Assembly (NCBI GenBank): GCA_900316265.1 | Contig: ONCH01000028.1 | Coordinates: 1 to 52,587 of the forward strand | Length of the DNA stretch: 52,587 nt | Source of the DNA: an uncultured Prevotellaceae bacterium | GTDB taxonomy: Bacteria > Bacteroidota > Bacteroidia > Bacteroidales > Bacteroidaceae | Direction: 5' to 3' | Shown: positions 15,517 through 30,566 of the stretch, piece by piece | How the letters are laid out: each line of letters begins with the position of its first letter | Position numbering within the stretch: position 1 is the first letter of the stretch | Program-made: the position numbers and the translations under genes | Notes under the pieces: model-generated | Database searches by the model: none | What the model saw: only the letters and a program-made list of their open reading frames with translations | Told to the model about the DNA's origin: nothing

Positions 15517-16100
15517 CCAACGGAGCGTTTCCCACGCACGCCGTACCGTTGAACATTCTCCACCATGCAGCGCATCTCATTGCCTGCGACGGAGCCATCA
15601 CCCCCCTCCTGTTGGAGGGATTGGGGGAGGCTGTTATCATTGGCGACGGCGACAGCGTGCCTGCCGAATACCGCAATCGTCTTATCCAGATTGACGAGCA
15701 GGACGACAACGACCTGACGAAAGCCACGCGCTACTGCATGGAGCATGGCTGGAAGCGCATCGCCTACCTGGGCTGTACAGGCAAGCGCGAAGACCACACC
15801 TTAGGAAACATCTCGCTACTCATGCGCTACTACCGCGACATGGATGTCGAAGGCATCCTGTATACCGATTACGGCTTCTTCACTCCTGCCCACGGCCATC
15901 GCACCTTTCTTTCTATGAAAGGCCAGCAGGTCAGCATCATCAATTTCGGCAGCCATCAGCTCACCTCCACAGGTCTTCGCTGGGATGCCTACAACTTCTC
16001 CGAGTGGTGGCAGGGCACCCTCAACGAATCCCTCGGCGACTCCTTCTCTCTCCAGGCCGACGGCTACTACCTGGTCTACCAGACTTACGACGTCAAGTAA
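15486..16100 (+). CDS. Thiamin pyrophosphokinase
   Basis: TPK transfers pyrophosphate from ATP to thiamin, making the cofactor TPP and trapping imported thiamin. The 204-residue product shows IACDGAITPLL, IIGDGDSVP, the DEQDDNDLTKA motif and GCTGKREDHTLGNISLL, all in family order. The ATG at 15486 lies inside the end of the transporter gene (31-base overlap), so coupling is likely. A GC-rich palindromic repeat occupies 15601-15632 inside the frame and encodes part of the loop between the first two motifs. See the repeat entry. Confidence 0.93.
   Translation: MEKTFDAVIIANGAFPTHAVPLNILHHAAHLIACDGAITPLLLEGLGEAVIIGDGDSVPAEYRNRLIQIDEQDDNDLTKATRYCMEHGWKRIAYLGCTGKREDHTLGNISLLMRYYRDMDVEGILYTDYGFFTPAHGHRTFLSMKGQQVSIINFGSHQLTSTGLRWDAYNFSEWWQGTLNESLGDSFSLQADGYYLVYQTYDVK
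15601..15632 (-). repeat. GC-rich palindromic repeat inside the thiamin pyrophosphokinase frame
   Basis: Read on the minus strand it starts AGCCTCCCCCAATCCC and ends GGAGGGGGG, matching the repeats at 28748-28781, 29573-29607 and 30426-30467. It stays in frame and encodes PLLLEGLGEA. Confidence 0.65.
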
Positions 16101-16518
16101 CCAGCAACGAAAGATTTCCACCTTTTTCTTTGTTGCTTCGGAAAATTCCTATAAATTTGCGACGTATTTCTACCGCAGGGAATTTACGAGGCTTTATTTT
16201 TGCCACATCGTGGACATAGTTGACAAGGGAAGTTGCCGACCTCACGGTTATTGGAAGCAACGGGCCAGCGGGGCGGCACAACTCCAGTCGGAGGTGCAGG
16301 TGAGCAAGCAGGCCACCAGTGTGAGACTGAAGTAATAAATGAAAAAAAACGTCGTATGGTGTAGTGATTGGTATGATAAATGCATTAAAAGTGCCCTTAA
16401 AGTAATAAAGTAATAAGTAATATTGGTCTTTTAAAAAAGTTTCCACAGACTCCTCGCGAGCCAGTGGAAACTCTAAAAAGATAACCTTTAAAAACACCAA
16501 ACATACAAGCTATTTGAT
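16101..16518. other. Intergenic region with a promoter-like element and terminators
   Basis: No confident gene. An AGCAACGAAAG / CTTTGTTGCT hairpin near 16103-16139 may end the thiamin operon. TTTG at 16129-16132 and TAAATTTG at 16152-16159 are 19 bases apart, as in a Bacteroidetes promoter, so a short transcript toward 16438 is possible. A frame from GTG 16211 to 16335 and a 24-codon frame from ATG 16339 to 16413 are open, but neither is recognised. Confidence 0.4.
16439..16471 (-). terminator. Terminator of the HU/smalltalk operon
   Basis: Arms GTTTCCAC / GTGGAAAC; on the minus strand they are followed by TTTTTT. It lies about 50 bases past the smalltalk stop codon. Confidence 0.7.
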
Positions 16519-16632
16519 TCAGAATAGCGGGCCTCGTCCCATGCAGCTGGTAGTGGTCAAAGCCGTGGCAGCGGCAGTGATGGCGGCTACGAGCACCTTT
16601 AGCAAGATTTCCCAGAAGCGATTTTTGTTCAT
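16519..16632 (-). CDS. 'Smalltalk' small membrane-type protein
   Basis: A 37-residue frame reads MNKNRFWEILLKVLVAAITA and continues with a hydrophobic stretch ending TTTSCMG. It matches the 'smalltalk' protein pattern known from Bacteroidales: a short Lys/Asn start, one hydrophobic helix with small residues, and a late Cys. Members are typically found just downstream of HU-family proteins, as here. A strong ribosome site (GGGAGGTGAACC) precedes the ATG. The role of the family is not known. It starts 18 bases after the HU-related gene stop. Confidence 0.8.
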   Translation of the reverse strand: MNKNRFWEILLKVLVAAITAAATALTTTSCMGRGPLF

Positions 16633-16650
16633 GGTTCACCTCCCTTCTGC

Positions 16651-17079
16651 TTAAGGTTCTTTGACGATGCGGTTCTCGGGCAGCTCCTCGAGCTTCAGAC
16701 CATCCAGGAACACCTTCGAGCGGTTGCCCGTGGCGTCAGCCTTGGTCTCTGGCTGGAAGATGATGTGCGCACCCTTGATGTGCTCCCTGGAGTTGAACTT
16801 CTTCGCGGTGGGTGCACCCTTCGACTCGATGCCGATCTTAAACCATCCCAGACCTTCGATGACCACGCGCTTGCCTTCCTGACACTGGCGCTGCAGCACA
16901 TCGACCATTTCGCGAATGACGGCACGCACGTCACTCTCCTTGGCGGTGGCGTTGCGCTCAACGATGCGTGCGATGTCGCGCGTATTCAGCGTGGTTACGT
17001 ACTTGGCGCGTGCGTACCACTTGCCTGAGCGCTTGGTGCCCGTCGACTGGTCCTGGTGGAGTGCATAAAATAGTGACAT
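16651..17079 (-). CDS. HU-related DNA-binding protein, paralogue 1
   Basis: This 142-residue protein is of the larger HU/IHF-related type found in Bacteroidetes. The HU-like core includes RDIARIVERNATAKESDVRAVIREMVDVLQRQCQEGKRVVIEGLGWFKIGIESKG, with the long beta arm region after it. It has an N-terminal extension (LFYALHQDQSTGTKRSGKWYARA) not found in ordinary HU. It is most similar to paralogue 2 next door, sharing QDQSTGTKRSGK.YARA. It precedes the smalltalk gene and probably shares its transcript. Confidence 0.82.
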   Translation of the reverse strand: MSLFYALHQDQSTGTKRSGKWYARAKYVTTLNTRDIARIVERNATAKESDVRAVIREMVDVLQRQCQEGKRVVIEGLGWFKIGIESKGAPTAKKFNSREHIKGAHIIFQPETKADATGNRSKVFLDGLKLEELPENRIVKEP

Positions 17080-17142
17080 ACTCTCTTTCCTTTCTTTTCG
17101 TTAGTTAAACATAGGTTCTTTCTCTCTCTCTTGCCCTAATGG

Positions 17143-17559
17143 TTAGGGCTCAGGCTCAGGCGGTGCATACTGGGGCAGTTCCTTGACGGAGACACCGTCC
17201 AGCAGCGGCTTCTGATGGTTCTTACGTTCTGGAGTGAACACGACGTGCGCACCGACAATCTTCTCCCTGGGGTCGAACGCTTCGTAGGATGCTGCGCCCT
17301 TCGACTCCAGCCCGATCTTGAAGGTACCCAGTCCGTTCAGCTTTACGGACTTCGAGTCCTGCATCTGCTGAGTCATGACCTGAACCACCTCATTGATGAC
17401 GGCTTCAATGTCGGCGCTCTTCACCGTGCAGTTGCGCTGCACCTCTTTGCAAAACTCGTCGTACTCCATCACGCCCACGGGCACGGCACGTGCGTAGAAC
17501 TTACCTGAACGCTTGGTTCCCGTTGACTGGTCCTGATGAATGCGATACATTACTGGCAT
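17143..17559 (-). CDS. HU-related DNA-binding protein, paralogue 2
   Basis: This 138-residue protein has the same layout as paralogue 1: N-terminal MYRIHQDQSTGTKRSGKFYARA, helical pair (EFCKEVQRNCTVKSADIEAVINEVVQVMTQQM), then KLNGLGTFKIGLESKGAASYEAFDPREKIVGAHVVFTPE. The C-terminus ends in a proline/glutamate tail (PPEPEP). It has its own promoter at 17608-17640 with a 16-base block also seen before paralogue 3. The 63-base gap to paralogue 1 suggests co-transcription. Confidence 0.82.
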   Translation of the reverse strand: MPVMYRIHQDQSTGTKRSGKFYARAVPVGVMEYDEFCKEVQRNCTVKSADIEAVINEVVQVMTQQMQDSKSVKLNGLGTFKIGLESKGAASYEAFDPREKIVGAHVVFTPERKNHQKPLLDGVSVKELPQYAPPEPEP

Positions 17560-17607
17560 AATGGTTGATTAATTTAGTTAAACATAGGGTTAATAATTCT
17601 CACAATG

Positions 17608-17640
17608 CAAAGGTACAAAAAAAGGGTACCCTAAGTCAAG
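17608..17640 (-). promoter_or_regulatory. Promoter of HU paralogue 2 with shared CTTGACTTAGGGTACC block
   Basis: On the minus strand TTGAC at 17635-17639 and TACCTTTG at 17608-17615 are about 20 bases apart. The block CTTGACTTAGGGTACC is identical to that at 18184-18199. AGGGTACCCT at 17623-17632 is a palindrome. Confidence 0.6.
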
Positions 17641-17680
17641 TGTTTCGCCATTTTTTTTCTTCCCTTCCCATTTTTTTTTC

Positions 17681-18061
17681 TCATGGGTTTTTCGGCAGCT
17701 CTACGAAGACGGGCTTTTCTGGCATCAGTGCCGCTTCGGGCTTGAATTTCACCCTCAGCCCCCGAATCATCTTCGGCGAGAACGGACGGTCAGGAGGGCA
17801 GGGGTCACACGTGATGCCTAACTTCAGCCATCCCAGCCCGTCGATGTGTACGCGGTGTGAGTCGGCCAGCAGCTGCTGCACCGTCTCGCCCAGCTCTATG
17901 AGCACCGCCATCACGTCGCTGCGCTTTACCGAGCAGTTCGACTGGATGATAGCAGCCAGCTCGCTGGTTTCTACTGTTCTCAGGTTCACGCTGTGCGCAA
18001 AGAAGTGTTTGGGGTAGCGTGACCAACTGGTGTTGTCTTGTCTTACTCTGTACGTTATCAT
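17681..18061 (-). CDS. HU-related DNA-binding protein, paralogue 3 (divergent)
   Basis: This 126-residue protein aligns with paralogues 1 and 2 over the HU-like core (ELAAIIQSNCSVKRSDVMAVLIELGETVQQLLADSHRVHIDGLGWLKLGI). The N-terminus differs (MITYRVRQDNTSWSRYPKHFFAHSV), as does the beta arm (CDPCPPDRPFSPKMIRGLRVKF). It is more diverged and may have separate DNA specificity. It has its own promoter (18167-18199). Confidence 0.75.
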   Translation of the reverse strand: MITYRVRQDNTSWSRYPKHFFAHSVNLRTVETSELAAIIQSNCSVKRSDVMAVLIELGETVQQLLADSHRVHIDGLGWLKLGITCDPCPPDRPFSPKMIRGLRVKFKPEAALMPEKPVFVELPKNP

Positions 18062-18166
18062 ATTGTTACAATTTAAAGTTGATTATCAGCCTCTTTTGTG
18101 AGCGCCCTGTAACGGCTCCGTCTCCAAATCTGATGTTTTCGCCTTCCGCTGTTACGCCTCACATTG

Positions 18167-18199
18167 CAAAGTTACTAAAAAAAGGTACCCTAAGTCAAG
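18167..18199 (-). promoter_or_regulatory. Promoter of HU paralogue 3 with shared CTTGACTTAGGGTACC block
   Basis: Minus-strand TAACTTTG at 18167-18174 with TTGAC about 20 bases upstream. The 16-base block is identical to the one before paralogue 2. Confidence 0.6.
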
Positions 18200-18242
18200 A
18201 GTTCCGCCCAGAAAAGTGAGCTGGCACTCGCGAAAATCTCAA

Positions 18243-18275
18243 ACTACGCAAATACGCAAATACTCAAATACGCAA
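18243..18275. repeat. Left array of 8-bp iterons (TACGCAAA type)
   Basis: Four tandem 8-bp units: ACGCAAAT, ACGCAAAT, ACTCAAAT, ACGCAA. They are inverted relative to the array at 18457-18487. Confidence 0.65.
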
Positions 18276-18307
18276 TAAGCGCCTTTTTAAACTATAGACC
18301 TAACAAC

Positions 18308-18345
18308 TTAATTTATATATATAATATATTATATATATAAATTAA
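18308..18345. repeat. Perfect 38-bp AT palindrome
   Basis: Two 19-base halves are exact reverse complements; the left half begins TTAATTTATATATATAATA. The DNA is pure A/T and could extrude a cruciform or melt easily. It lies between two inverted iteron arrays. Confidence 0.75.
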
Positions 18346-18456
18346 ACATATATTTTAATATCATTGAAAAAATCTGAAAAATAACCCAAACGGTCAGCCA
18401 CTCAAACCAAGCTCCCCCCCAAAAACGCATCAAAACACCTCAAAAACGCCCTTAAT

Positions 18457-18487
18457 GAGTATTTGCGTAGTTGCGTAGTTGCGTATT
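18457..18487. repeat. Right array of 8-bp iterons, inverted
   Basis: GAGTATTTGCGTAGTTGCGT followed by AGTTGCGTATT. Its reverse complement has three to four TACGCAA units with the same ACTC variant as the left array. It ends 16 bases before the umuC stop codon. Confidence 0.65.
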
Positions 18488-18502
18488 TCGGCCCTGTTAA
18501 TC

Positions 18503-19798
18503 CTACTTCAACTTGATGATATCTGACCATCGGGTAGTGGGGTTAGGACTACGGAAATCATGTTTAATGGCATTGGCAAAGACATTGGCCTTTCCTTTTC
18601 CGTCCTTGCGCGTGTACTGTTGCGCTCCTATGACAATGGTCTCTGAGCCTTGCATGCGATTGATGCGATCTACCACCTCGTCCAGTCGTCTCATCTTCTC
18701 TATCTGTTCGGCATTCACATCGAAGAGGTCTTGTTGCAGGGGGCTTTTGGGTGAGATACCCATCACGATGACTCCTGCCTTCTTGTACTGATAGCCCTGC
18801 CGGTATATCTGCTGCAACGCCTCGCAGGCGGCCTGGACTATGGGTATGGTACTGCTGGTGGGTGTGATGAGCCGCGTCTCGTGGAAGTTCCAGTATTGCG
18901 GCAAGTCCTCGCGAAACGTGTTTGTGTTCAGGAATACGCCCACTATCGATGCTACCGTACCCTCCGTCCTGAGTTTCTCAGCACATCGGGCGGCATAGTT
19001 GGCCACGTGTGTACGCAGGGTGTCGAGGTCTGCAATCATGCCATTGAACGAGCGACTGGTGCAGATGCTTTTCTTCTTTGCCAGTTGTTCGTTGGGCACC
19101 ACGTCCTCACCGTTCAGTTCCTGCCACGTGCGCACGATGTTGATGTTGTTGAACGTCAGGCGCACCCAATCCCTGTGGTGCTGTGCGAAGTCATAGGCAG
19201 TCTTCACACCCATCGCCTGCAACTTGGCCGCATATCGCCGCCCTATGCCCCAGACATCTTCTATCGCGCACCACTGCAGCGCCTTCTCCCGCTTATAGTC
19301 CGTGTCTATCATGCAGCAATGGCGGTATGCCTCGTATTTCTTTGCCAGTCGTGAGGCAATCTTCGCCAGCGTCTTGTTAGGAGCCAGTCCTATGCTGACG
19401 GGCATGCCCACCTCGCGCTTGATGCGCTTGTGCAGGTGTTCTCCCCATTGCTGCAACTGGCCCTGTTCTATGCCGTCCAGATACATAAAGCACTCGTCAA
19501 TGGAGTAGCGGAAATAGGCAGGCGTCTCCTGTCGGATAATGCTCACCACACGCCCAGTCAACTCGCCGTACAACTCGTAGTTCGACGAGAATACGGCAAT
19601 CTTCTGACCAGGGAACAACTGCTCCAATTGGAAATACGGCGTACCCTCCTTGATACCCATGCGCTTTGCCTCGTTCGAGCGCGCCACCACACACCCGTCA
19701 TTGTTCGACAGCACCACGACAGGCTTGCCCAGCAGGTCAGGCCTGAACACTCGTTCGCAGGAAACGTAGCAGTTGTCGCAGTCGCAGATGCCGTACAT
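18503..19798 (-). CDS. umuC: Y-family DNA polymerase V catalytic subunit (UmuC)
   Basis: UmuC is the error-prone translesion polymerase of the SOS response. The 431-residue protein has the Y-family N-terminus CDCDNCYVSCERVF with Asp6, the catalytic pair Asp101-Glu102 in YSIDECFMYL, the palm/thumb segment GLAPNKTLAKIASRLAKK, and little-finger and C-terminal UmuC regions. LQQDLFD at residues 354-360 looks like a beta-clamp-binding motif. It starts 12 bases after umuD, giving a standard umuDC operon. It is placed beside the HU-related array, not with housekeeping genes. Confidence 0.93.
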   Translation of the reverse strand: MYGICDCDNCYVSCERVFRPDLLGKPVVVLSNNDGCVVARSNEAKRMGIKEGTPYFQLEQLFPGQKIAVFSSNYELYGELTGRVVSIIRQETPAYFRYSIDECFMYLDGIEQGQLQQWGEHLHKRIKREVGMPVSIGLAPNKTLAKIASRLAKKYEAYRHCCMIDTDYKREKALQWCAIEDVWGIGRRYAAKLQAMGVKTAYDFAQHHRDWVRLTFNNINIVRTWQELNGEDVVPNEQLAKKKSICTSRSFNGMIADLDTLRTHVANYAARCAEKLRTEGTVASIVGVFLNTNTFREDLPQYWNFHETRLITPTSSTIPIVQAACEALQQIYRQGYQYKKAGVIVMGISPKSPLQQDLFDVNAEQIEKMRRLDEVVDRINRMQGSETIVIGAQQYTRKDGKGKANVFANAIKHDFRSPNPTTRWSDIIKLK

Positions 19799-19810
19799 GG
19801 TTTTAAGGGA

Positions 19811-20248
19811 TTAGATTTTCTCGAAGGTACGAATCAGATGGATGACGACACCCCATACCTGGAAGTCGTCGCCAGCCTCCACCTTGAATACGGGATAGTC
19901 CGGGTTGGCAGGTCGCAGTTCGATGTATCCATCCTTCTTGTGCGTCAAGTCCAGATACTTGATGGTGAACTCCCCGTTCCAGAAAGCCACGATGATAGAC
20001 CCATGATGCGCTTCCACAGCCCTGTCGATGATGACCCTGTCGCCATCGAAGATGCCAGCATCCTTCATCGAGTCGCCTTCCACGTCGCCATAGAACGAAG
20101 CCTCCGGATGGCGTATGTAGTCGCGGTTGAAGTCCAGCGTCTCGTGCACATAGTCTTCTGCCGGACTGGGGAATCCCGCCCTTACGCCAGCGTGCATCAG
20201 TTCCAGTTTGGTGTCGAACACCCCTTTCTGTATCTTGATATTTCCCAT
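19811..20248 (-). CDS. umuD: UmuD-like self-cleaving SOS protein
   Basis: UmuD is a LexA-fold protein that RecA stimulates to cut itself; the processed form joins UmuC as Pol V. The 145-residue product has the cleavage site Ala24-Gly25 in AGFPSPAEDY, the catalytic Ser60 in VEGDSM, and Lys97 in FTIKYL. I chose the ATG at 20248 (MGNIKIQKGVFDTK) over an earlier one at 20299, since the longer form adds residues unlike the family and the promoter overlaps that stretch. It forms an operon with umuC. Confidence 0.92.
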   Translation of the reverse strand: MGNIKIQKGVFDTKLELMHAGVRAGFPSPAEDYVHETLDFNRDYIRHPEASFYGDVEGDSMKDAGIFDGDRVIIDRAVEAHHGSIIVAFWNGEFTIKYLDLTHKKDGYIELRPANPDYPVFKVEAGDDFQVWGVVIHLIRTFEKI

Positions 20249-20274
20249 ATATTCTCCTTTTATTCCATTCCTGC

Positions 20275-20308
20275 CACAAAAGTACAAATCATTCTGCAAT
20301 TACGTGCA
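20275..20308 (-). promoter_or_regulatory. umuDC promoter with a dyad (TGCA-N6-TGCA)
   Basis: Minus-strand TACTTTTG at 20275-20282 fits the -7 element. TGCAATTACGTGCA at 20295-20308 has palindromic ends and overlaps the -33 area, where an SOS-type repressor could bind. The operator assignment is a guess. Confidence 0.4.
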
Positions 20309-20387
20309 ATATCTCCCAACTTTTTATCTAATTTCCCCTTTTAACGTTTGTTTTATTATTAAATTTTGAAATTAACGCGAAACGTAT

Positions 20388-20395
20388 TACCTTTG
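20388..20395 (+). promoter_or_regulatory. -7 element for the RNA ahead of the GIY-YIG gene
   Basis: TACCTTTG with TTTTG about 20 bases upstream (around 20364). It is divergent from the umuDC promoter. Confidence 0.55.
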
Positions 20396-20401
20396 TAATC
20401 G

Positions 20402-20553
20402 AGTTTTAGGTAATTATGGGACAATGCGCGTGTGCCGTGAGGTACTTACGTTCCCCCTCATAGATTTTTTAGTTATATTTTTACAATTTTCCATTTTGGG
20501 CTTTTCATTAAGCCTGAAAATCCCCCACCGTTCGTGAGGATAGTGGGGGTTTT
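20402..20553 (+). ncRNA. Candidate leader or small RNA with two hairpins
   Basis: Transcription from the 20388 promoter would cross a 15-codon frame (20416-20463, MGQCACAVRYLRSPS). The end of that frame overlaps a TGAGG/CCTCA hairpin followed by T-rich DNA. Next comes a strong CCCCCAC/GTGGGGG hairpin (20522-20549) with a T tail. This resembles an attenuator or a stand-alone small RNA. No known RNA family is recognised. Confidence 0.4.
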
Positions 20554-20596
20554 AGAAAGAACCTAACTACTATTCAATAAAACAACGAACATAAAA

Positions 20597-21223
20597 ATGG
20601 AATACGGAATAGTTTACTTACTGACAAATCCTTACATGCCTGGACTGGTGAAGATAGGCATGACCAAGCAAGAAGACTTGGATAAAAGGATGAAGGAGCT
20701 CTACACTACTGGAGTTCCTGTAGCCTTCGAGTGCCAATTTGCTTGCAAGGTAAACAACAAGGACTGTGCGAAAATTGAGCGTGCCCTACATACTGCCTTT
20801 GAACCTCAGCGAGTGAACAAGAATCGTGAGTTCTTTAAAATCAATGTTGAGCAGGCGAAGGCCATCCTTGAACTATTCCACCACACTGATGTTACAGAGG
20901 ACGTCACTGAAGAGATACAGAATGACTTGACAGAAGATGATAAAGCCGCATCAACAAAGGCAAAAGGCCATCGTCCTCCATTGAACTTTATCCAGATGGG
21001 TATGCAAAAAGGGGACATCCTAAAGTGGAAGGATGATCCCAATATCACAATATCTGTGCATACAGATAGAACTGTCTTGTATAATGGTGAAGAAATCGCT
21101 ATCAGTGCACTTACCAGAGACCTAAAGCATGCAAAATACTACGTTGCTCCAGGCTCATATTGGACATATAATGGCAAACTGTTGAGCGATATTTACGAAG
21201 AAACTTATCCGTTTGAAGAGTAA
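20597..21223 (+). CDS. GIY-YIG (T5orf172-type) nuclease with C-terminal RAMA-like domain
   Basis: This 208-residue protein has two parts. Residues 1-90 are a T5orf172/MUG113-type GIY-YIG fold: GIVYLLTNP, VKIGMT, Arg31 in DKRMKEL, Glu61 in KIERALHTAF, and NKNREFF. Residues 100-125 are a charged linker. Residues 132-205 (NFIQMGMQKGDILKWKDDPN...GEEIAISALTRDL...YWTYNGKLLSDIYEETY) resemble the RAMA domain, proposed to read modified DNA bases. The pair suggests a modification-dependent nuclease or a DNA-repair factor. It is divergent from umuDC and 4 bases upstream of a C2H2-type gene. Domain calls are by eye. Confidence 0.72.
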   Translation: MEYGIVYLLTNPYMPGLVKIGMTKQEDLDKRMKELYTTGVPVAFECQFACKVNNKDCAKIERALHTAFEPQRVNKNREFFKINVEQAKAILELFHHTDVTEDVTEEIQNDLTEDDKAASTKAKGHRPPLNFIQMGMQKGDILKWKDDPNITISVHTDRTVLYNGEEIAISALTRDLKHAKYYVAPGSYWTYNGKLLSDIYEETYPFEE

Positions 21224-21227
21224 AAGT

Positions 21228-21518
21228 ATGTCAGAAAAAGTTAAGTGCAAAATATGCGGTAAAGTAGGGCTTGCTAAGGACAACAAAGGCCTTATAAAGC
21301 ATTTACGTTTAGCACATAATGATTGTGTCTCAACGGATTTCAATAAAGAGGAATATTTTGAAGCAGCAGATCCCGATTCTATTATAGAAATTAGATCTAT
21401 TTCAATAAAGGATTGGAGAAAAAAGCAAAAAAGGAAATTGACTAAAAGGCTGAAAGAGAACAGTAAGTCAAAGAATCCCTTCGTAAGAATAATATATACC
21501 CCAATGACCAATGGATAA
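21228..21518 (+). CDS. Small C2H2-type zinc-finger protein
   Basis: This 96-residue protein has an N-terminal finger: Cys7-x2-Cys10 and His25-x4-His30 in VKCKICGKVGLAKDNKGLIK and the following HLRLAH. A lysine/arginine-rich C-terminus follows (DWRKKQKRKLTKRLKENSKSK). It probably binds nucleic acid. I chose the ATG at 21228 over an upstream TTG that would overlap the nuclease gene. Only 4 bases separate the two, so they are probably expressed together. No function is known. Confidence 0.65.
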   Translation: MSEKVKCKICGKVGLAKDNKGLIKHLRLAHNDCVSTDFNKEEYFEAADPDSIIEIRSISIKDWRKKQKRKLTKRLKENSKSKNPFVRIIYTPMTNG

Positions 21519-21520
21519 CG

Positions 21521-21547
21521 TGAAACAGGTACCTGGTACCTGTTTCA
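21521..21547. repeat. 27-bp near-perfect palindrome with two GGTACC sites
   Basis: Arms TGAAACAGGTACC / GGTACCTGTTTCA (13 bp each) around one base. No T run follows, so a protein-binding site is as likely as a terminator. It starts 2 bases after the C2H2 gene stop. Confidence 0.7.
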
Positions 21548-21606
21548 AATGTTTCTGATGCACAAAAATGGAGAAATGTGCATTATAAATAATTAACGGA
21601 AAAAAG

Positions 21607-21640
21607 TTCCTGTTCGAGGATTATCGAGCAGGAATTTTTT
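21607..21640 (+). terminator. Terminator ahead of the coiled-coil gene promoter
   Basis: Arms TTCCTGTTCGA / TCGAGCAGGAA, loop of 6, then TTTTTT. Confidence 0.75.
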
Positions 21641-21641
21641 G

Positions 21642-21649
21642 TATCTTTG
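21642..21649 (+). promoter_or_regulatory. -7 element for the coiled-coil gene
   Basis: TATCTTTG followed by C, directly after the terminator. The leader has a CCTC/GAGG hairpin and an AAAAGGAG ribosome site before the ATG at 21721. Confidence 0.6.
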
Positions 21650-21720
21650 CAGTCCTTTCGCCTCTGATGGCTGAGGGGTGGGAGGAACCAAAACTATATA
21701 TATAAAAAAGGAGTAGAACT

Positions 21721-22227
21721 ATGGAATTAAATCAGGGTGAATTTGATTCGGTGACACAACGATTGGAGCAGTATGCCTCGCAGGTGAGCATACTGCAGAC
21801 GAGACTTGAGATACAACCGGAACTGGTCAGGAAGGATGAAGAACTGGCCAGGCTGAGAACGGAACTGAAGGATTCGGAAATGCGCTGTATGCGTGCTGAA
21901 GAGGAACTGGAGGAACTGAAGGGAAAATATGAATTGCTGTCGCATCAAAATGACTCGGCATTGGTAGAGAATGCATGGCTGAAGAATTGTATCCTGCTGT
22001 CGTTGACAAGCATCAGGACATTTATGCGTATGGTGAAGCGTGTAGAGTTGAAGTCATTGTTCATTACATTTCTGCACAAGACGATACTTCCCGACATGGG
22101 GGTTCGTGGTATTCATGCTATCGACGACACGATGGACCTGACGGATATTAATGAGATTGAGAAGTTGGCCGACCAGATTATTCTGGAGAATCACGGCAAT
22201 GTGACACATGGAAAGGTGATTGAGTGA
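21721..22227 (+). CDS. Coiled-coil protein of unknown function
   Basis: This 168-residue protein is not recognised. Residues 5-85 are a strong coiled coil (heptads in VTQRLEQYASQVSILQTRL and RKDEELARLRTELKDSEMR). The second half is more globular and ends NEIEKLADQIILENHGNVTH. The IILENHGNV stretch resembles LVIENHGTM in the next gene. Its TGA overlaps the next ATG by one base (TGATG), so translation is coupled. Confidence 0.6.
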   Translation: MELNQGEFDSVTQRLEQYASQVSILQTRLEIQPELVRKDEELARLRTELKDSEMRCMRAEEELEELKGKYELLSHQNDSALVENAWLKNCILLSLTSIRTFMRMVKRVELKSLFITFLHKTILPDMGVRGIHAIDDTMDLTDINEIEKLADQIILENHGNVTHGKVIE

Positions 22228-22682
22228 TGACTGAGGAAGAGAAGTTGAAGATACTGGAGGGTATTATTAAGAATGGTGCGTCTATTGGCCAACTGGTGAT
22301 TGAGAATCATGGAACGATGAACTACAATGCTGGAGGCGAGAAGAAGGCGAATCTTGACGACGTGACACTGGATGACATGAAAAAGGCTGTCGCGGAGTGT
22401 GGCATGTATATGTATGCTGTGGCAGGAATTACCGTAGCCTACGCCATAGGGCGTGACTTGTGCCATTGGACGCTGTCGCAATCTGACTTTGAACGGAAGA
22501 TGAGGATGGTGGGTTACGACTGCAAGGATGGTACCATTGCCAACACGCTACGCAACAATCCATATATGCGTGAGCACGTCAGCAAGTGGGCTACACTCGG
22601 CGCCAAGAGCGAGGTGCTGAGATTGCGTGACGAACTGCAAAAATCATTGATTGGCATGAAAGAAAAACCTGCCGAGACATAA
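22227..22682 (+). CDS. Hypothetical protein coupled to the coiled-coil gene
   Basis: This 151-residue protein is not recognised. The N-terminus has EKLKILEGIIKNGASIGQLVIENHGTMNYNAGG, with an ENHG motif as in the preceding protein. The centre has a short hydrophobic stretch (MYMYAVAGITVAYAIG). The C-terminal half includes TIANTLRNNPYMREHVSKWA and a helical end. The start at 22227 is preferred to GTG 22224 because it gives the one-base stop-start overlap. A terminator follows. Confidence 0.6.
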   Translation: MTEEEKLKILEGIIKNGASIGQLVIENHGTMNYNAGGEKKANLDDVTLDDMKKAVAECGMYMYAVAGITVAYAIGRDLCHWTLSQSDFERKMRMVGYDCKDGTIANTLRNNPYMREHVSKWATLGAKSEVLRLRDELQKSLIGMKEKPAET

Positions 22683-22713
22683 AGTGCGACATGAACGACA
22701 TGGAATGCGACAT

Positions 22714-22748
22714 GGGTGTCTGACGAACAGTCAGGCACCCATTTTTTT
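22714..22748 (+). terminator. Terminator of the two-gene unit
   Basis: Arms GGGTGTCTGAC / GTCAGGCACCC with one mismatch, loop of 5, then a T run. Confidence 0.7.
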
Positions 22749-22752
22749 GTTC

Positions 22753-23390: not shown

Positions 23391-23468
23391 ACCTGAGTTG
23401 AAGTGAGGAGGATGTTCTCGAGTAAATGGCCAAAGATTCTGACCTTCTCTCACAAATCAACTAAAGGT

Positions 23469-23819: not shown

Positions 23820-24319
23820 AGAAGAATGAGAAGCTATTTCTGTATGGGCAGTGCACGGAGCACTTCGACATGGGTGAGCTGACGGAGAGCGGTCATGCAG
23901 TAAAGCATGGCATCGTGAACATGCCAGGCGAGGAGCAGCAGGGGAATCTGAAAGTGCTGTGCAGGGACTATCTGGAACCGTTGCGCCTACACTTGGGCGA
24001 GGCGGTGAGGGTGAACAGTGCCTACCGCTGCCCTGAACTGAATGCCCTGGTGGGCGGTAGCCGAGGCTCATGGCACCTGCATGGTGCTGCCGCTGATATC
24101 CACTGCGCTACGATAGGGCGGGCCATCAACGTGCTGCATTTCTTCCGCAAGCACTTTGCGGAACAGGGAGTAAGCTACGATGAGTGCTACGCCAAGATAG
24201 GACAAAATGCATGGTATGTGCATGTGGCTTTTAACCCCGCAGGTCGGCAGCACAACCGTATGAGGGATAACCTGCGTGAAATCCGTGCGCTTTGGAGAAT
24301 GGATAACGAGAGAATATAA
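23816..24319 (+). CDS. M15-family (VanY/Hedgehog-type) zinc peptidase
   Basis: This 167-residue enzyme is of the M15 type, which cuts peptidoglycan stem peptides. The recognisable run is NLKVLCRDYLEPLRLHLGEAVRVNSAYRCPELNALVGG, then SWHLHGAAADI with zinc ligands His87 and Asp94, and the third ligand His136 in WYVHVAF. It has no signal peptide, as with phage-type endolysins of this fold. Amidases or M15 enzymes recur next to HU-related, smalltalk and VirE_N genes in Bacteroidales. It overlaps the previous gene by 4 bases. Confidence 0.85.
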   Translation: MKKNEKLFLYGQCTEHFDMGELTESGHAVKHGIVNMPGEEQQGNLKVLCRDYLEPLRLHLGEAVRVNSAYRCPELNALVGGSRGSWHLHGAAADIHCATIGRAINVLHFFRKHFAEQGVSYDECYAKIGQNAWYVHVAFNPAGRQHNRMRDNLREIRALWRMDNERI

Positions 24320-24353
24320 TGTGTTTAACTTATTAAAATCTGTATTTAGAGAA

Positions 24354-26840
24354 ATGTTTAGTATCCAACGAAATTTTGCTTGCGCAACAGAACTTTGCGC
24401 AAAGGAGAAATTCTACGACATTGTAGGCAGTCAGGCGGTGGCAAGTATTATCCTTGCCTGCCGCAAGGCCGCTGGCGAGGGCAACAAGAAGGAGTATGAC
24501 CGCTGGAAGCGGAAGCTGCCTGCCTTTATCTTCATGTCGGAGGTGATGCCCAACGAGGGCCCTGACGGTAAGGGTAAGAAGCTGCCGCTGGATCGCTGGC
24601 GCAAGCAGCATGCCTGCCGTCTGAACGGATTGGTGATGGTGGATTTTGACCATGTGGAGAACCCCAAGGAGCGCTTCACGGAGTTTGTGAGAGACCATGC
24701 CCACTGGCTTGACGAGACATCGTGTCCTACCGCTATCATGCTGGCCCATGTGACACCCAGCGGTCAGGGTTTGCGGCTGGTATGCCGTGCCGATGTGGAG
24801 GTGGGTAACCTGTTTGACAACGCCCAGCGTGTGGCTACGGCATTCGGCCTGCCGCTGGATGATCAGTGTAAGGATGCCAGCCGCCTGTCGTTTGCGGTGA
24901 CAAAGGACGACCTTCTTTATATTAACGAAAAGATTTTTGACTATGAGAACAAGGAGTATGATGAGAAATTCGGTGGTATCTATCGTAATGGCGGCTCTGC
25001 TGCTGCCACTACAAGTAGCAGTAGTAACGCTGGCAATGCTGCAGGCTCCGCTCAGCAGACTGGAGGAAGCAGCGTGGACGGCGCTACTGGAGGTAGAGCG
25101 GATGTACAGGGAGGCGATGGAGCGCCTCTGACATTTGACGGTGTACCCCTTCAGCAGATAGTGGATGCCTACTTGGCTGTGAATACCAACTACACGGAGG
25201 GCCACCGCAGAGACCATTGCAACCGCATGGCACTGGTGCTGCGGCACTGTGTGGAGAATAGCGTGCAGCGGTTGAAGCAGGTGGTGAGGATGGCTCCCTA
25301 CGTCAGGAAGTGGGAGGAGCAGGAGAAGAATACGCAGGAGATAGACAAGCTGTGTGAGGATGCCTGCAAGGTGCGCTACACCAGTGGTCTCTCGAAGCAG
25401 TTGCGGGATGTGCTGGGACGCGCAGGATGGAAAGACCCTGAGGCTGACGACCAGGAACAGCGCAACCAAGAGCAGCTATCGGCACTGACCTCGCTGGGAA
25501 AACGGCTGCGCCCACTGCTGGCTGCACCCTACGACGTGGTGACACGAGGTATGTCGGATGCTAACGTCCCTGCCGCCGTCTTTGCCTCTGCCACGATGTT
25601 CTGCACGCTAATGACACGCTGCCAGTATGAGCACTACGACGGCAAGCTGCACCGCATGAACCCGCAGGCGCTCATCATTGGCGAACCGGGTACGGGCAAG
25701 GGCGTGATAGACTGGCTGAATCGTCAGATAATGAGTGTGCTGCGGGCCAAGGATGCGATGGGCAGACAGGCCCTGAAGGAGTACAAGAAGAAGCGCAAGG
25801 AGCGCTCCACCAGCTCGAAAGAGCAGAAGAAGGAGGTACTGGTGGAACCCGACAGCATGATACGCTACCTGATGACCAATACGTCGAACAACCAGTTCTA
25901 CAAGCGTCTGGTGAATGCCAAGGAGGAAGTGGACGGTGAGCTGTGGTGGTTGCACGTCTACATGTTTGACTCAGAGCTGACATCAGCCAACAAGGCCAAT
26001 GGCGGAGCGGACTGGATAGGCAAACGAGACTTGGAGCTGAAAGCCTTCCACAACGAGGATGCTGGCTCGGACTATGCCAATGATGATTCGGTGAACGATT
26101 TCGTACCCGTCCATTGGTGCAGTGTAACCACTGGCACAAGGATAGCCCTTTCAAAAAAATTTACACTGGCAAATATCAATGATGGTCTATGCACGCGTCA
26201 GGCTATAGTTCCCATGGATAACAACCGCTACAAGATGATAAGCCGAGGCGACGCTGTGGTCAACCATGAGCAGGAACTGAGCCTGAAGGAGTGGGGCTAC
26301 TGGTTTGACAGGCTGCACGGCACGATGCCGATAGAGAAGCTGATAGACCACGTCTACAACCTCTGTGAGGCGTCGGCAATGGAGGCAAAAATGGCCGCTG
26401 ACGACGAACTCGACACGCTCAGACGCCGTGCTGTGTTCTATGCCACATGGTTCACCGTGCCCCGCATCGTGGCTCGTCTGCGCCATCAGGAGGACGGCAC
26501 GCCCGTAGATTTGCAGCAGATAAAGGTGACAGCGGACGACCTGCAGTTTGCCACCATCATCTACGATGCTATCATCTACTGGCAGGACTACTTCTATGGT
26601 CAGATGCTACAGGACTCATGGGACAATGCTGGTCGCTCGTTCTTGCCGAGGGTGCGGAAGTCGGCTGCATCAACACTCTTTGAACAACTCAACAAGGAGT
26701 TTGCTGTTAAGGACGTGGAGAAGGTACTGAATGTCAGCAAAAGGGCTGCTGAAAGCCACATCTATCGTTGGAAGTCGTCGGGCTATGTGGAGCAAATAAA
26801 GCGTGGTGCATATAGGAAGATATTGAATGAAATCATGTAA
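24354..26840 (+). CDS. VirE_N / DUF3987 primase-helicase-like ATPase
   Basis: This 828-residue protein has a VirE_N-type N-terminal domain (LPAFIFMSEVMPN...LNGLVMVDFDHVENPKERF...MLAHVTPSGQGLRLVCRAD), a fold related to primase/polymerase domains. A Gly/Ser/Ala-rich linker follows near residues 215-260, then a DUF3987-type ATPase core with Walker A GEPGTGKG near residue 445 and an acidic Walker B-like MFDSELTSANK. The end (EQLNKEFAVKDVEKVLNVSKRAAESHIYRWKSSGYVEQI) looks like a winged-helix DNA-binding domain. The ATG at 24354 is preferred; GTG at 24321 or 24276 would extend it. It may act in replication of a mobile or prophage-like unit. Confidence 0.8.
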   Translation: MFSIQRNFACATELCAKEKFYDIVGSQAVASIILACRKAAGEGNKKEYDRWKRKLPAFIFMSEVMPNEGPDGKGKKLPLDRWRKQHACRLNGLVMVDFDHVENPKERFTEFVRDHAHWLDETSCPTAIMLAHVTPSGQGLRLVCRADVEVGNLFDNAQRVATAFGLPLDDQCKDASRLSFAVTKDDLLYINEKIFDYENKEYDEKFGGIYRNGGSAAATTSSSSNAGNAAGSAQQTGGSSVDGATGGRADVQGGDGAPLTFDGVPLQQIVDAYLAVNTNYTEGHRRDHCNRMALVLRHCVENSVQRLKQVVRMAPYVRKWEEQEKNTQEIDKLCEDACKVRYTSGLSKQLRDVLGRAGWKDPEADDQEQRNQEQLSALTSLGKRLRPLLAAPYDVVTRGMSDANVPAAVFASATMFCTLMTRCQYEHYDGKLHRMNPQALIIGEPGTGKGVIDWLNRQIMSVLRAKDAMGRQALKEYKKKRKERSTSSKEQKKEVLVEPDSMIRYLMTNTSNNQFYKRLVNAKEEVDGELWWLHVYMFDSELTSANKANGGADWIGKRDLELKAFHNEDAGSDYANDDSVNDFVPVHWCSVTTGTRIALSKKFTLANINDGLCTRQAIVPMDNNRYKMISRGDAVVNHEQELSLKEWGYWFDRLHGTMPIEKLIDHVYNLCEASAMEAKMAADDELDTLRRRAVFYATWFTVPRIVARLRHQEDGTPVDLQQIKVTADDLQFATIIYDAIIYWQDYFYGQMLQDSWDNAGRSFLPRVRKSAASTLFEQLNKEFAVKDVEKVLNVSKRAAESHIYRWKSSGYVEQIKRGAYRKILNEIM

Positions 26841-26879
26841 TGATTATAAGTTTTTCTTTTGTTACTTTTAGGCGATATT

Positions 26880-26910
26880 TTTCTGCTGGCTCGTGATGAG
26901 TCAGCAGAAA
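26880..26910 (+). terminator. Hairpin terminator downstream of the DUF3987 gene
   Basis: Arms TTTCTGCTGGCTC / GAGTCAGCAGAAA with one mismatch and a 5-base loop, then TTTG. Confidence 0.6.
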
Positions 26911-27141
26911 TTTGTTATACAAACGAATATAATAATATTATTCAAGTTTCGCATTCGCTCAACTTCTTTGTAGTTAAGAAGTTAAGTAGTTATCACTTTG
27001 CTCGTCCTTTCGGACAGAAGTTAAGCCATTACTCTTTTCTACCAAAAGCAGCCTACAGACATTCGGCATAACTTCTTAACTTCTTTAACTTCTTAACTAC
27101 TTCAGAAAGTTGAAATAATATTATATTATTACGATAATACA

Positions 27142-27243
27142 ACTTCGTCGAAAGTACTCTCGCTCGGAAAATTGCAATAAATTTGCATTTTCGCTCGATT
27201 TGCACTACCTTTGACTTCGTCGAAGGTACTTAGCACTCGGAAA
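27142..27243 (+). repeat. Imperfect direct repeat upstream of argS
   Basis: ACTTCGTCGAAAGTACT... at 27142-27170 and ACTTCGTCGAAGGTACT... at 27214-27243, both ending in CTCGGAAA. The second copy directly follows a TACCTTTG element at 27206-27213. Confidence 0.6.
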
Positions 27244-27265
27244 TAAAAAGAAAAGCAAGCATTCC

Positions 27266-27297
27266 TTTTGTATTTCTCTCGTTTTTTCGTACCTTTG
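27266..27297 (+). promoter_or_regulatory. argS promoter
   Basis: TTTTG at 27266-27270 and TACCTTTG at 27290-27297, separated by 19 bases, 21 bases before the argS ATG. Confidence 0.65.
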
Positions 27298-27318
27298 TAC
27301 CCACTTAACGTTAAGAAT

Positions 27319-29066
27319 ATGAAGATAGAACAACAGATAGAGCAGGCCGCGATGGCCGCAGTGAAGGCACTCTACGGACAAGAGGTGCCTGAGAAGATGG
27401 TGCAGCTGCAGAAGACCCCGAACAGACCGGTCAGGAGATTGGCCAGTATCTGGTGGACAACTGCGAGGCTGTCAGCAAGTTCAACGTGGTGAAGGGTTTC
27501 CTGAACCTGAGCATTGCTGACGCAGCATGGCTCAACCTGCTGGAAGACATCGACAAGGACGACCACTACGGCGAAAAGGCTGCGGACGAGGGTTCACCCC
27601 TCGTGATGATTGAGTATAGCTCGCCCAACACCAACAAGCCCCTGCACCTCGGCCACGTGCGCAACAACCTGCTGGGTTGGTCGCTGGCTCAGATTATGGA
27701 AGCCAATGGCAACAAGGTGGTGAAGACCAATATCGTCAACGACCGCGGTATTCATATCTGTAAGTCGATGCTGGCTTGGCTGAAGTACGGCAACGGCGAG
27801 ACCCCAGAGTCATCTGGCAAGAAGGGCGACCACTTGATTGGCGACTACTACGTGGCTTTCGATAAACACTACCGCGAAGAGGTAAAGGAACTCGCCGCAC
27901 AGTATGTAGCTGACGGTATGTCCGCTGAGCAGGCTGAGGAGAAGGCTAAGCAGGAGGCTCCACTGATTAAGGAGGCTCACGAGATGCTGGTGAAATGGGA
28001 GAACAACGACCCAGAAGTACGCGCCCTGTGGGAAAAGATGAACAACTGGGTATATGCCGGTTTCGACGAGACCTACAAGAAGATGGGTGTTGGTTTCGAT
28101 AAGATTTATTACGAGAGCCAGACCTACCTGAAGGGTAAGGCCAAGGTAGAGGAAGGACTCGCCAAGGGTCTCTTCGAGCGCCACGAGGATAACTCGGTAT
28201 GGGCCGACCTGACCAACGAAGGTCTGGACCAAAAGCTGCTGCTCCGTTCTGATGGTACCTCAGTATATATGACACAGGACATCGGTACTGCCGAGATGCG
28301 TTTCCAGGACTACCCCATCGACAAGATGATTTATGTCGTGGGCAACGAGCAGAACTACCACTTCCAGGTGCTCTCTATCCTGTTGGACCGTCTGGGCTTC
28401 AAGTGGGGTAAGGAACTGGTACACTTCTCTTACGGTATGGTGGAACTGCCTAACGGTAAGATGAAGAGCCGCGAAGGAACCGTTGTTGATGCTGACGACC
28501 TGATGGCGCTAATGGTAGAGGATGCCTACAAGACCTCTATGGAGCTGGGTAAATTCGACGATATGACTGAAGAAGAGCGCCGCGAGATTGCTCGCATCGT
28601 GGGTATGGGCGCCTTGAAATACTTCATCCTGAAGGTAGATGCTCGCAAGAACATGCTGTTCAACCCTGAAGAGAGTATCGACTTCAACGGTAACACCGGT
28701 CCTTTCATCCAGTACACCTATGCTCGTATCCGCAGTATTCTAAGAAAAGCCTCCCCCAACCCCCTCCAAGTAGAGGGGGCTACGAAAGCGGTGGAGCTTT
28801 CAAATAAAGAGGTGGAACTCATCCAGAAGATGTCTGAGTTTGGTGCTGCCGTTGAGCAGGCTGGCAAGGACTATAGTCCCTCTGGTATCGCCAACTACTG
28901 CTACGAGCTGACGAAGGTGTTCAACCAGTTCTACCACGACTTCTCTATCCTCAACGAGCCCGATGAGCAGAAGAAGGCCGTGCGTCTGATGCTGGCCAAG
29001 AACGTAGCAAAGATTATCAAGAACGGTATGGGTCTGCTGGGTATCGAGGTACCTGAGAGAATGTAA
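27319..29066 (+). CDS. argS: Arginyl-tRNA synthetase, disrupted near the N-terminus
   Basis: ArgS charges tRNA-Arg. The start at 27319 gives the family N-terminus (MKIEQQIEQAAMAAVKALYG), but after VQLQKT (27417) the frame shifts. The protein resumes at 27420 as EQTGQEIGQYLVDNCEAV, with about 22 family residues (the FEG...TLVVFPFL block) missing. The rest is complete: HIGH-type HLGHVRN near 27646, KMSKS-type KMKSREG near 28458, the catalytic core and the DALR anticodon domain ending EVPERM. A GC-rich palindromic repeat sits in frame at 28748-28781. The N-terminal gap is more likely an assembly fault than real. Confidence 0.9.
28748..28781 (+). repeat. GC-rich palindromic repeat inside argS
   Basis: AGCCTCCCCCAACCCCCTCC then a GAGGGGGCT end. 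It is in frame and encodes about ASPNPLQVEGA in the linker before the anticodon-binding domain. Confidence 0.75.
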
Positions 29067-29072
29067 AAGCCT

Positions 29073-29097
29073 CATGTCGCGACTTTGTCGCGACATG
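29073..29097 (+). terminator. Perfect hairpin after argS
   Basis: Arms CATGTCGCGAC / GTCGCGACATG (11 bp) with loop TTT, 7 bases after the argS stop. The right arm contains the likely ATG of the next gene, so it could also shape translation. Confidence 0.6.
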
Positions 29098-29571
29098 CAA
29101 AAAGAAATTATGGTTCAGAATCCTCCCGACTATAGACATGACACCGTACTGCCCTTGCCCCTTGAAGTAAAGGCAGACGCTTGGGCTGTGGATGCCGCCT
29201 GCAGCGGCAATCCGGGGCCTATGGAGTATCAAGCCATTGACCTGCAGACAGGTGCACAGGTATTCCACTTCGGTCCTATGAAGGGTACCAATAACATCGG
29301 CGAGTTCTTGGCGATTGTCCACGCCCTCGCCCTCTGCTGGCAACAGGGATTGCATGACAAAACCATCTATTCTGATTCCTACAACGCCATCCTTTGGGTG
29401 AATAAGCGAAAATGTAAGACAAAATTAGAGCGCACCCCTGAAACGGAGCCGCTCTATCAGATTATCCTTCGTGCTGAACGCTGGCTACAGACCCACAATT
29501 TCCGCAATCCCATTATCAAGTGGGAGACAAGTAAGTGGGGCGAGGTTCCTGCCGACTTCGGCAGGAAGTAA
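29095..29571 (+). CDS. Ribonuclease H family protein
   Basis: This 158-residue RNase H-fold protein would cut RNA in RNA-DNA hybrids. Acidic catalytic positions are visible: Asp in AVDAACSGNPGP, Glu in NNIGEFLAIVHALAL, Asp in IYSDSYNAILWV, and the terminal Asp in EVPADFGRK. The end KWETSKWGEVPADFGRK is typical of the Bacteroidetes version. A start at 29095 or 29110 is likely; the frame back to 29074 runs through the argS hairpin. It lies directly after argS. Confidence 0.85.
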   Translation: MQKEIMVQNPPDYRHDTVLPLPLEVKADAWAVDAACSGNPGPMEYQAIDLQTGAQVFHFGPMKGTNNIGEFLAIVHALALCWQQGLHDKTIYSDSYNAILWVNKRKCKTKLERTPETEPLYQIILRAERWLQTHNFRNPIIKWETSKWGEVPADFGRK

Positions 29572-29572
29572 G

Positions 29573-29607
29573 AGCCTACCCCAAACCCCTCCCAAAAAGG
29601 AGGGGCT
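29573..29607. repeat. GC-rich palindromic repeat, intergenic copy
   Basis: AGCCTACCCCAAACCCCTCC to GGAGGGGCT between the RNase H stop and the ribD stop. Its CCCCTCC/GGAGGGG hairpin may act as a bidirectional terminator for these convergent genes. Confidence 0.75.
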
Positions 29608-29609
29608 TT

Positions 29610-30566
29610 CTATTCAAGGGCCTTGATATACCTCTTTATATTATTGCCATCATAGTCTGCCGAAGACAGCAGGGTGACGTTGGCAGGAACCTGCGGTGCA
29701 CGTGTGCCGTCACTGACGGTAACAGTGCCTGTCTCTACACGAATCTCATCCCACAGACCAGCAGCAAGGAACGACTCATGGGTCTGGCGACCGCCCTCGA
29801 CGATGAGCGACTGGATGCCCTGCTGATAGAGGTCGTCGATGAGTTGGGACAGGGGGCGCTGGTGTGTCAGGACGACGCGCTTGGGATTGGGACCGTGCCA
29901 GTGGCGGACCGTCAACTGTGGATGTTCACGTACGTCGGTGGTGTGACCCACAAGGATGGCATCTTCCTCAGCACGCAGTTGGTGCGAGAGCATCTGCGTC
30001 TGTTCGTTGGAAATCTGCAGCGCCTTGCCGTGGTCATCGATAAAACCGTTGGCCGTCTGTGCCCACTTGAGGATGATATAAGGACGATGCTTGGAATGAT
30101 AGGTGAAGAAACGGCGATTCAGCCACTGACACTCTTTCTCCAGTACACCCACGGTGACGTCGATGCCAGCATCCTGCAACTTCTTGATACCCCTACCCTG
30201 CACCTCGGCAAACGGGTCGATGGTGCCTACCACCACACGACGCACACCTTTCTTAATAATAAGGTCGGCACAGGGCGGTGTCTTGCCATAGTGCGAACAA
30301 GGTTCCAGCGAGACATATATGGTAGCATCCTTCAGCAACAGTTCGTCCTCTGACTTGACAGAGGCAAAGGCATTTACCTCGGCATGGCCCTGTCCACAGC
30401 GCACATGGTAGCCCTCACCGATAATCCTCCAACTCCCCCTCCCTTTGGAGGGGGCTGGGGGGAGGCTAATCACCGCACCCACCATTGGGTTAGGCCGTGC
30501 TCCCTGGATACCGTTGGCGGCCAGTTGCAGACAGCGCCGCATATATTTTTCGTCTTCACTCAGCAT
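29610..30566 (-). CDS. ribD: Bifunctional riboflavin deaminase/reductase
   Basis: RibD deaminates and then reduces a pyrimidine intermediate in riboflavin synthesis. The 318-residue protein has the deaminase zinc site HAE at residues 61-63 and PCSHYGKTPPC (Cys90, Cys99), then the reductase domain (RPYIILKWAQTANGFI, VEGGRQTHESFL). Residues 34-46 (SLPPAPSKGRGSW) come from a palindromic repeat inserted at 30426-30467. In ordinary RibD this place holds a short turn between GAVI and GRIIGEGYH. The frame is kept. Confidence 0.93.
   Translation of the reverse strand: MLSEDEKYMRRCLQLAANGIQGARPNPMVGAVISLPPAPSKGRGSWRIIGEGYHVRCGQGHAEVNAFASVKSEDELLLKDATIYVSLEPCSHYGKTPPCADLIIKKGVRRVVVGTIDPFAEVQGRGIKKLQDAGIDVTVGVLEKECQWLNRRFFTYHSKHRPYIILKWAQTANGFIDDHGKALQISNEQTQMLSHQLRAEEDAILVGHTTDVREHPQLTVRHWHGPNPKRVVLTHQRPLSQLIDDLYQQGIQSLIVEGGRQTHESFLAAGLWDEIRVETGTVTVSDGTRAPQVPANVTLLSSADYDGNNIKRYIKALE
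30426..30467 (-). repeat. GC-rich palindromic repeat inside ribD
   Basis: On the minus strand AGCCTCCCCCCAGCCCCCTC to a GGAGGGGGAG... end, in frame within the deaminase domain. It is the longest of the four copies (42 bases). Confidence 0.75.

What the first reader, a model, noticed from the sequence alone, without database searches (positions are those of the whole stretch)
15601..30467. Palindromic GC-rich repeat inserted in frame in three proteins
Four copies of a 32-42-bp element with consensus near AGCCTCCCCCAAnCCCCTCC to GGAGGGGGCT occur at 15601-15632, 28748-28781, 29573-29607 and 30426-30467. Three lie within genes (thiamin pyrophosphokinase, argS, ribD) in both orientations, and all keep the frame, giving loop peptides such as ASPNPLQVEGA and SLPPAPSKGRG. 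This parallels the Rickettsia palindromic elements that insert into proteins.
Basis: partly seen in the sequence, partly recalled or inferred. Interest (0 to 1): 0.72.

Follow-up and report, generated by a model that had tools for sequence, protein, structure and literature searches.

The report
Hairpin repeats lodged inside bacterial proteins
A gut bacterium carries a small family of self-complementary DNA repeats that sit between genes and also, without breaking the reading frame, inside ordinary enzymes, at flexible spots where some related species carry other repeats.

Summary
The window is one contig of a Prevotella-like MAG. Four copies are present (0.01 expected by chance): in ribD, in argS, between two convergent genes, and in thiN, where no gain of length is shown. 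A covariance model finds 40 copies at 34 sites in the genome. Of these, 21 sites lie inside open frames, among them SOD, mfd (two sites), CoaBC, a CCA-adding enzyme, TatD and GH3; 13 are intergenic. The 7 close pairs of this genome are all inverted with the same ends outward, as in REPINs.

In ribD the insert is absent from 27 of 27 aligned relatives, in SOD from 14 of 16. In the CCA enzyme and at one mfd site, the same loop holds the palindrome in a few species, seven-base arrays or other hairpins in others, and nothing in the rest. Best reading: a REP/REPIN-like family whose gene copies are survivors in loops that tolerate extra peptide. The Rickettsia parallel is good as analogy, not as membership. 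What moves it is unknown: 1 of 32 RAYT-type transposase loci examined has an element nearby, and 12 of 42 relatives with ten or more copies have no such gene detected.

The parts
15601..15632 (-). Element copy in thiN (doubtful: no net gain of length against several homologues)
28748..28781 (+). Element copy in frame in argS, peptide ASPNPLQVEGA, in a loop that differs in length and content between species
29573..29607 (+). Intergenic element copy between the 3' ends of two convergent ORFs
30426..30467 (-). Element copy in frame in ribD (model match 30432-30467), peptide SLPPAPSKGRGSW, net gain 9 residues against the closest relative
15489..16100 (+). thiN (thiamin pyrophosphokinase) ORF; start codon not established
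27453..29066 (+). argS ORF as it is open here; the N-terminal part is out of frame upstream
29610..30566 (-). ribD ORF

Best explanation
A dispersed family of roughly 34-39-base C/G-rich palindromes in a Prevotella clade, of the REP/REPIN kind. Copies occur singly and as inverted doublets, next to gene ends and inside genes. They probably spread as non-autonomous mobile DNA. Insertion is not aimed at reading frames: copies in genes survive where the net change is a multiple of three and the place is a loop or linker that tolerates a Pro/Gly/Ser-rich spacer. The repeat makes this easier because it rarely contains a stop codon in any frame. Shown here: the family, the doublet layout, the in-frame location, empty sites in relatives (ribD, SOD), and use of the same loops by other repeats. 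Inferred: mobility, an enzyme acting in trans, neutral survival, and translation of the inserts.
For: 40 copies at 34 sites with E below 0.1, 21 sites in open frames, 15 of the 18 of these hosts scanned match a Pfam family. Empty sites: ribD 27 of 27 aligned relatives lack the element, SOD 14 of 16; printed PDB alignments lack the residues too. 7 of 7 close pairs in this genome are inverted with the same ends outward; doublets in relatives at CCA (G083) and mfd (G028, G068) have the same layout. Copy number varies from 0 to at least 66 between species of the genus. 23 of 40 aligned copies have all six frames open against 4.7% of random 36-mers of the window. 10 of 13 intergenic sites lie within 20 bases of an ORF of 90 codons or more, as REPs do (PMC3733652, section 15).
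Against: The mobilising enzyme is not found: 1 of 32 Y1-transposase loci has an element within about 1.5 kb. No target-site duplication could be tested, and ribD and SOD show replacement of about four residues rather than clean addition. In relatives, direct arrays also occur: nine copies in a row in L356 and a direct pair in L354, so doublets are not the only arrangement. The best copies of 27 relatives lie inside long ORFs in 7 cases against 61% of random positions. Hairpin strength is not specially kept in genic copies.
Confidence: 0.7

Rival explanations
1. Repair-based capture: no dedicated transposase. Hairpin-forming or tandem repeats of any kind are copied into new places by template switching or gap repair, and tolerant loops collect them. 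Palindromes and seven-base arrays in the same loops are products of one process.
For: In the CCA loop 29 of 95 distinct sequences hold period-seven arrays and 14 GC-rich palindromes by rule, 26 are short. The mfd C-terminal and argS loops also hold different repeat types, judged by eye. The inserts in ribD and SOD replace residues. Twelve of 42 relatives with ten or more copies have no Y1 transposase detected.
Against: The uniform doublet layout in this genome (7 of 7) suggests a defined unit. Loops may simply tolerate anything, so sharing a site need not mean sharing a mechanism. Tandem arrays can also arise on the spot by slippage.
Confidence: 0.17
2. A RAYT (Y1 REP-associated transposase) moves the family now, as in Pseudomonas REPINs, but its gene is unlinked or missed in incomplete MAGs.
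For: Y1_Tnp matches in 64 of 100 genomes; weak positive rank correlation with element number (Spearman 0.23, p 0.02, 99 relatives). Bacteroidetes have their own Y1 subclasses with atypical flanking hairpins (PMC6006769, passages).
Against: 1 of 32 Y1 loci has the element near it; Fisher test for presence against ten or more copies p 0.21; five genomes at 97% completeness or more (G003, G026, G032, G070, G118) have 16-29 copies and no Y1 hit. The Y1 gene of this genome is flanked by a different palindrome (by eye).
Confidence: 0.08
3. Ordinary features: transcription terminators at gene ends plus chance matches in C/G-rich codons; no mobility.
For: Many intergenic copies are close to ORF ends. 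The thiN copy may be a chance match. An 18-base pattern with 2 mismatches found 7 places in the genome against 5 for its reversed control.
Against: Chance expectation in the window is 0.01. ribD and SOD inserts are absent in relatives. Terminators are not expected in frame inside SOD, mfd or CoaBC.
Confidence: 0.05

Closest known systems
REP / REPIN sequences (Pseudomonas and others)
   Same: Short palindromes, dispersed, inverted doublets, close to gene 3' ends; intragenic in-frame REPs are reported in several genera (PMC3733652, section 15 read; PMC3116915, passages).
   Different: No conserved GTAG or CGTC tag in the alignment (by eye); no RAYT beside it; in this genome 21 of 34 sites are inside genes.
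Rickettsia palindromic elements (RPE) and Wolbachia protein-coding palindromes
   Same: Palindromic repeats in frame inside unrelated proteins, with surviving hosts (PMC10969869 and PMC3733652, passages).
   Different: Other phylum; here units of about 36 bases and about 110-150-base doublets; sequence relation to RPEs was not tested.
MITEs
   Same: Doublets have inverted ends and no coding of their own.
   Different: No parent transposon or target duplication found.
Heptanucleotide STRR repeats of cyanobacteria (recalled)
   Same: Tandem arrays of period seven.
   Different: Other phylum; concerns only the secondary finding of heptad arrays in the same loops.

Membership tests
REP/REPIN | Short (20-40 base) palindrome in many dispersed copies | tested here: met
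   40 copies, 34-39 bases; pairing 89.9% of cells with 18 double changes against 4.5 in shuffles, on an alignment fitted to the structure
REP/REPIN | Inverted doublets as a unit | tested here: met
   7 of 7 close pairs in this genome (one member has E 0.33); direct arrays also seen in two relatives' loci
REP/REPIN | Mostly extragenic | tested here: inconclusive
   13 of 34 sites here are intergenic; in relatives 20 of 27 best copies are not deep inside a long ORF
REP/REPIN | Associated RAYT gene flanked by the repeat | tested here: not met
   1 of 32 Y1 loci examined; the other Y1 matches were not examined
REP/REPIN | GTAG or CGTC tag at one end | tested here: not met
   None conserved in the 40-copy alignment (by eye)
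Rickettsia palindromic element | In-frame insertion in unrelated proteins | tested here: met
   21 of 34 sites in open frames; empty sites for ribD and SOD
Rickettsia palindromic element | Sequence descent from RPE families | not tested
   No RPE sequence was compared; the host is a Prevotella-like bacterium
MITE | Target-site duplication | not testable with these tools
   Relatives too diverged at the sites; ribD and SOD show replacement of residues

The most novel reading that the evidence does not exclude
In this Prevotella clade, tolerant loops of core enzymes (CCA-adding enzyme, Mfd, ArgS, RibD) act as collecting sites into which a general, element-independent process copies whatever hairpin or seven-base repeats the genome carries, so that repeat DNA is a continuing source of new protein loops.
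Probability: 0.22. Interest if true: 0.8.

Novelty: new variant of a known kind. Interest (0 to 1): 0.6.

Why it matters
Protein-coding palindromes are best known from Rickettsia and Wolbachia. Here a gut genus shows them in housekeeping enzymes, with empty, palindrome-filled and heptad-filled versions of one loop in sister species. That is a natural series for asking how repeat DNA becomes protein sequence and which sites tolerate it.

Tried and rejected
Y1 (RAYT) transposase as neighbour of the element: not supported as a rule, although a weak rank correlation exists. Tight 18-base pattern as census: 7 places against 5 for its reversed control, so covariance models were used instead. thiN as a third clear insertion: not upheld. 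Selection for the hairpin in coding copies: not supported; in the aligned set of 40, the 23 genic copies fold less strongly than the 17 intergenic ones (-15.1 against -17.8), and swapping arms did not weaken the genic ones. Rfam: no match up to E 1 in 15000-31500. Element in the argS loop of relatives: only one weak hit (L044, E 0.08), so argS sharing rests on other repeats. A palindrome doublet at mfd in G083 was seen by eye but has no model hit and is not counted. Literature: searches with Prevotella or Bacteroidetes terms gave no description of this family in their listings, in an open-access library only; one listed paper was followed in passages.

Biases. R1 was built from 8 copies, four of them from the window, so their E-values flatter; R2 was built from R1's matches. 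At most 30 loci per genome search were fetched, best first, and alignments used those. The CCA regex missed 10 of 110 loci (printed) and counted identical loops once; its classes are rules, and 21 of 95 loops fit none. The heptad census used 265 chosen loci, many centred on these loops. The flanks of the 13 intergenic sites were read by eye and as ORFs, not scanned for broken genes. The structure model is of low confidence.

Full report
What was checked. A 20-base pattern with three mismatches finds these four and nothing else in the window, with 0.01 expected. In ribD and argS the ORFs stay open across the element; the third copy is between two convergent ORFs, 1 and 2 bases from their stop codons; the fourth, in thiN, is open too.

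Where the window comes from. It is one contig of a 2.85-Mb MAG in 93 contigs. The best 80 named matches of its CCA-adding enzyme are labelled Prevotella, Prevotellaceae or Bacteroidales, many with ruminant or rumen isolate names, with 91% identity for the closest. I call it Prevotella-like on that basis.

Genome-wide census. A covariance model built from eight copies finds 40 copies with E below 0.1 in the genome. Merging close pairs gives 34 sites. I read the context of each. Twenty-one sites lie inside ORFs that run through: argS, ribD, thiN (doubtful), a PLP-dependent decarboxylase, mfd twice, a LytTR response regulator, a cation ATPase, a CCA-adding enzyme, a BT4734/VapE protein, a DUF3987 protein, CoaBC (DFP), GH3, a glycosyltransferase, SOD, a C26/M19 fusion, TatD, a biotin-carrier protein, and three ORFs without a Pfam family. 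Weaker matches in LpxB and CobD (E 0.49 and 0.35) are also in open frame and are not counted. Thirteen sites are intergenic; 10 of them lie within 20 bases of an ORF of 90 codons or more. Two of the thirteen touch gene ends: one may form the C-terminal tail of an RbfA-like protein and one the N-terminus of a PurE-like protein (names recalled from the sequence). I saw no site that breaks a gene out of frame, but flanks were not scanned for that.

How far this is selection. Long ORFs cover 90.5% of 1.02 Mb of fetched sequence, a set biased to genes, and 62% of the sites are in genes. So there is no aiming at genes; that the copies in genes are in open frame is what survivors would show. The best copies of 27 relatives are deep inside long ORFs in 7 cases, against 61% of random positions in the same loci, so in relatives gene copies are the minority. 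The repeat is unusually harmless when read: 23 of 40 aligned copies have no stop in any of six frames, against 4.7% of random 36-mers of the window.

Evidence of insertion. In RibD, 27 relatives could be aligned (of 29 fetched); none has the element's residues. Twenty-four have four to six residues where this protein has 13, and three have other, longer loops. Two printed PDB alignments lack the residues. In SOD, 14 of 16 relatives lack the element, and G008 and G074 share it; three printed PDB alignments lack it. The net gain is nine residues in both enzymes, with about four of the original ones gone, so the event was not a clean addition or was trimmed later. For thiN no net gain is shown.

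The same loops hold other repeats. In the CCA-adding enzyme 95 distinct loops were read from 110 loci. By rule, 26 are short (9 residues or fewer), 14 hold GC-rich palindromes of any family, 29 hold arrays of period seven, of which 11 also form long inverted arms, 2 hold arrays of period eight or nine, 3 hold other hairpins, and 21 fit no class. Equal-length windows from the rest of the same ORFs show period-seven arrays in 22 of 1759 and long hairpins in 4 of 1759, against 29 of 69 and 21 of 69 in loops of 30 bases or more. By model, the family studied here is in the CCA loop of this genome and of 4 of 29 relatives (G074, G083, and weakly G065 and G079), and at the C-terminal mfd site of this genome and of 4 of 29 relatives (G028, G068, G074, G075); at the N-terminal mfd site it is in this genome alone. 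Other relatives hold heptad arrays there, judged by eye, and so does the argS loop. In 265 loci, arrays of period seven number 81, those of periods 8 to 14 together 37, 14 of which have period 14. An AlphaFold model of the closest CCA enzyme puts the insert in a coil with pLDDT below 50 between two helices, but its mean pLDDT is only 61.

Doublets. The seven close pairs of the genome are in the order + then -, with the AACCC/AGCC ends outward. Doublets in G083 (CCA) and in G028 and G068 (mfd) have the same layout; L356 holds a direct array of nine copies and L354 a direct pair. The inverted layout is that of REPINs (PMC3116915, abstract and passages).

Distribution. In the order, 14 of 149 genomes, this one included, have any at E up to 0.001, and the others have one to three; only one other genus of the same family was in that sample and had none. 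High copy number was seen only in this genus in these samples.

Mobilising enzyme. Y1 transposase matches occur in 64 of 100 genomes, but 1 of 32 such loci examined has an element near it. Among 99 relatives, 42 have ten or more copies and 12 of these have no Y1 hit, five of them at 97% completeness or more; the rank correlation is weak (0.23, p 0.02) and the presence test not significant (p 0.21). The Y1 gene of this genome is flanked by a different palindrome, by eye. What moves the GC-rich family is unknown.

Comparison with what is known. In-frame palindromic repeats are known from Rickettsia and from GTAG/CGTC REPs in several genera, where tolerance in linkers or loops was already suggested (PMC3733652, section 15 and passages; PMC10969869, passages). 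Bacteroidetes Y1 transposases with atypical flanking structures are described (PMC6006769, passages). My searches found no account of this Prevotella family. I file it as a new variant of a known kind: REPIN-like in layout, RPE-like in effect, without the RAYT link shown.

Noticed in passing
27300-27460: argS is out of frame at its N-terminus: against L041 a stretch of about 22 codons is missing and the frame changes there. It may be an assembly error of the MAG.
   Followed up: partly
12449-12481, 23303-23388, 33308-33403, 44948-44981: Tandem arrays of periods seven, eight and nine in the window; period seven dominates in relatives' loci.
   Followed up: partly
L011 (ribD), L062 (argS), L230 (CCA enzyme): Relatives carry other in-frame inserts in the same loops, including inverted heptad arrays coding SEELRVKSEE...SSLFTLHSS.
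   Followed up: partly
L051:2794-2889 and L060:1759-1854: A different GC-rich inverted pair fills the argS loop of G075 and G065; a like pair is in the CCA loops of L297 and L314.
   Followed up: no
L038:2960-3010: A palindrome like the one flanking the Y1 transposase gene lies in open frame in a neighbouring gene (by eye).
   Followed up: no
G000:C24:4016-4081, C33:2499-2568, C77:99354-99421: A second palindrome (TGCGTGCCACACTCCTACCT...AGGTGGGAG type) is nested in the loop of three element copies (by eye).
   Followed up: no
L039:1249-1902: A weak Y1_Tnp match whose protein carries repeated HRNEE-type units.
   Followed up: no
L356:163-548: Nine direct copies of the element in a row in G016.
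   Followed up: no
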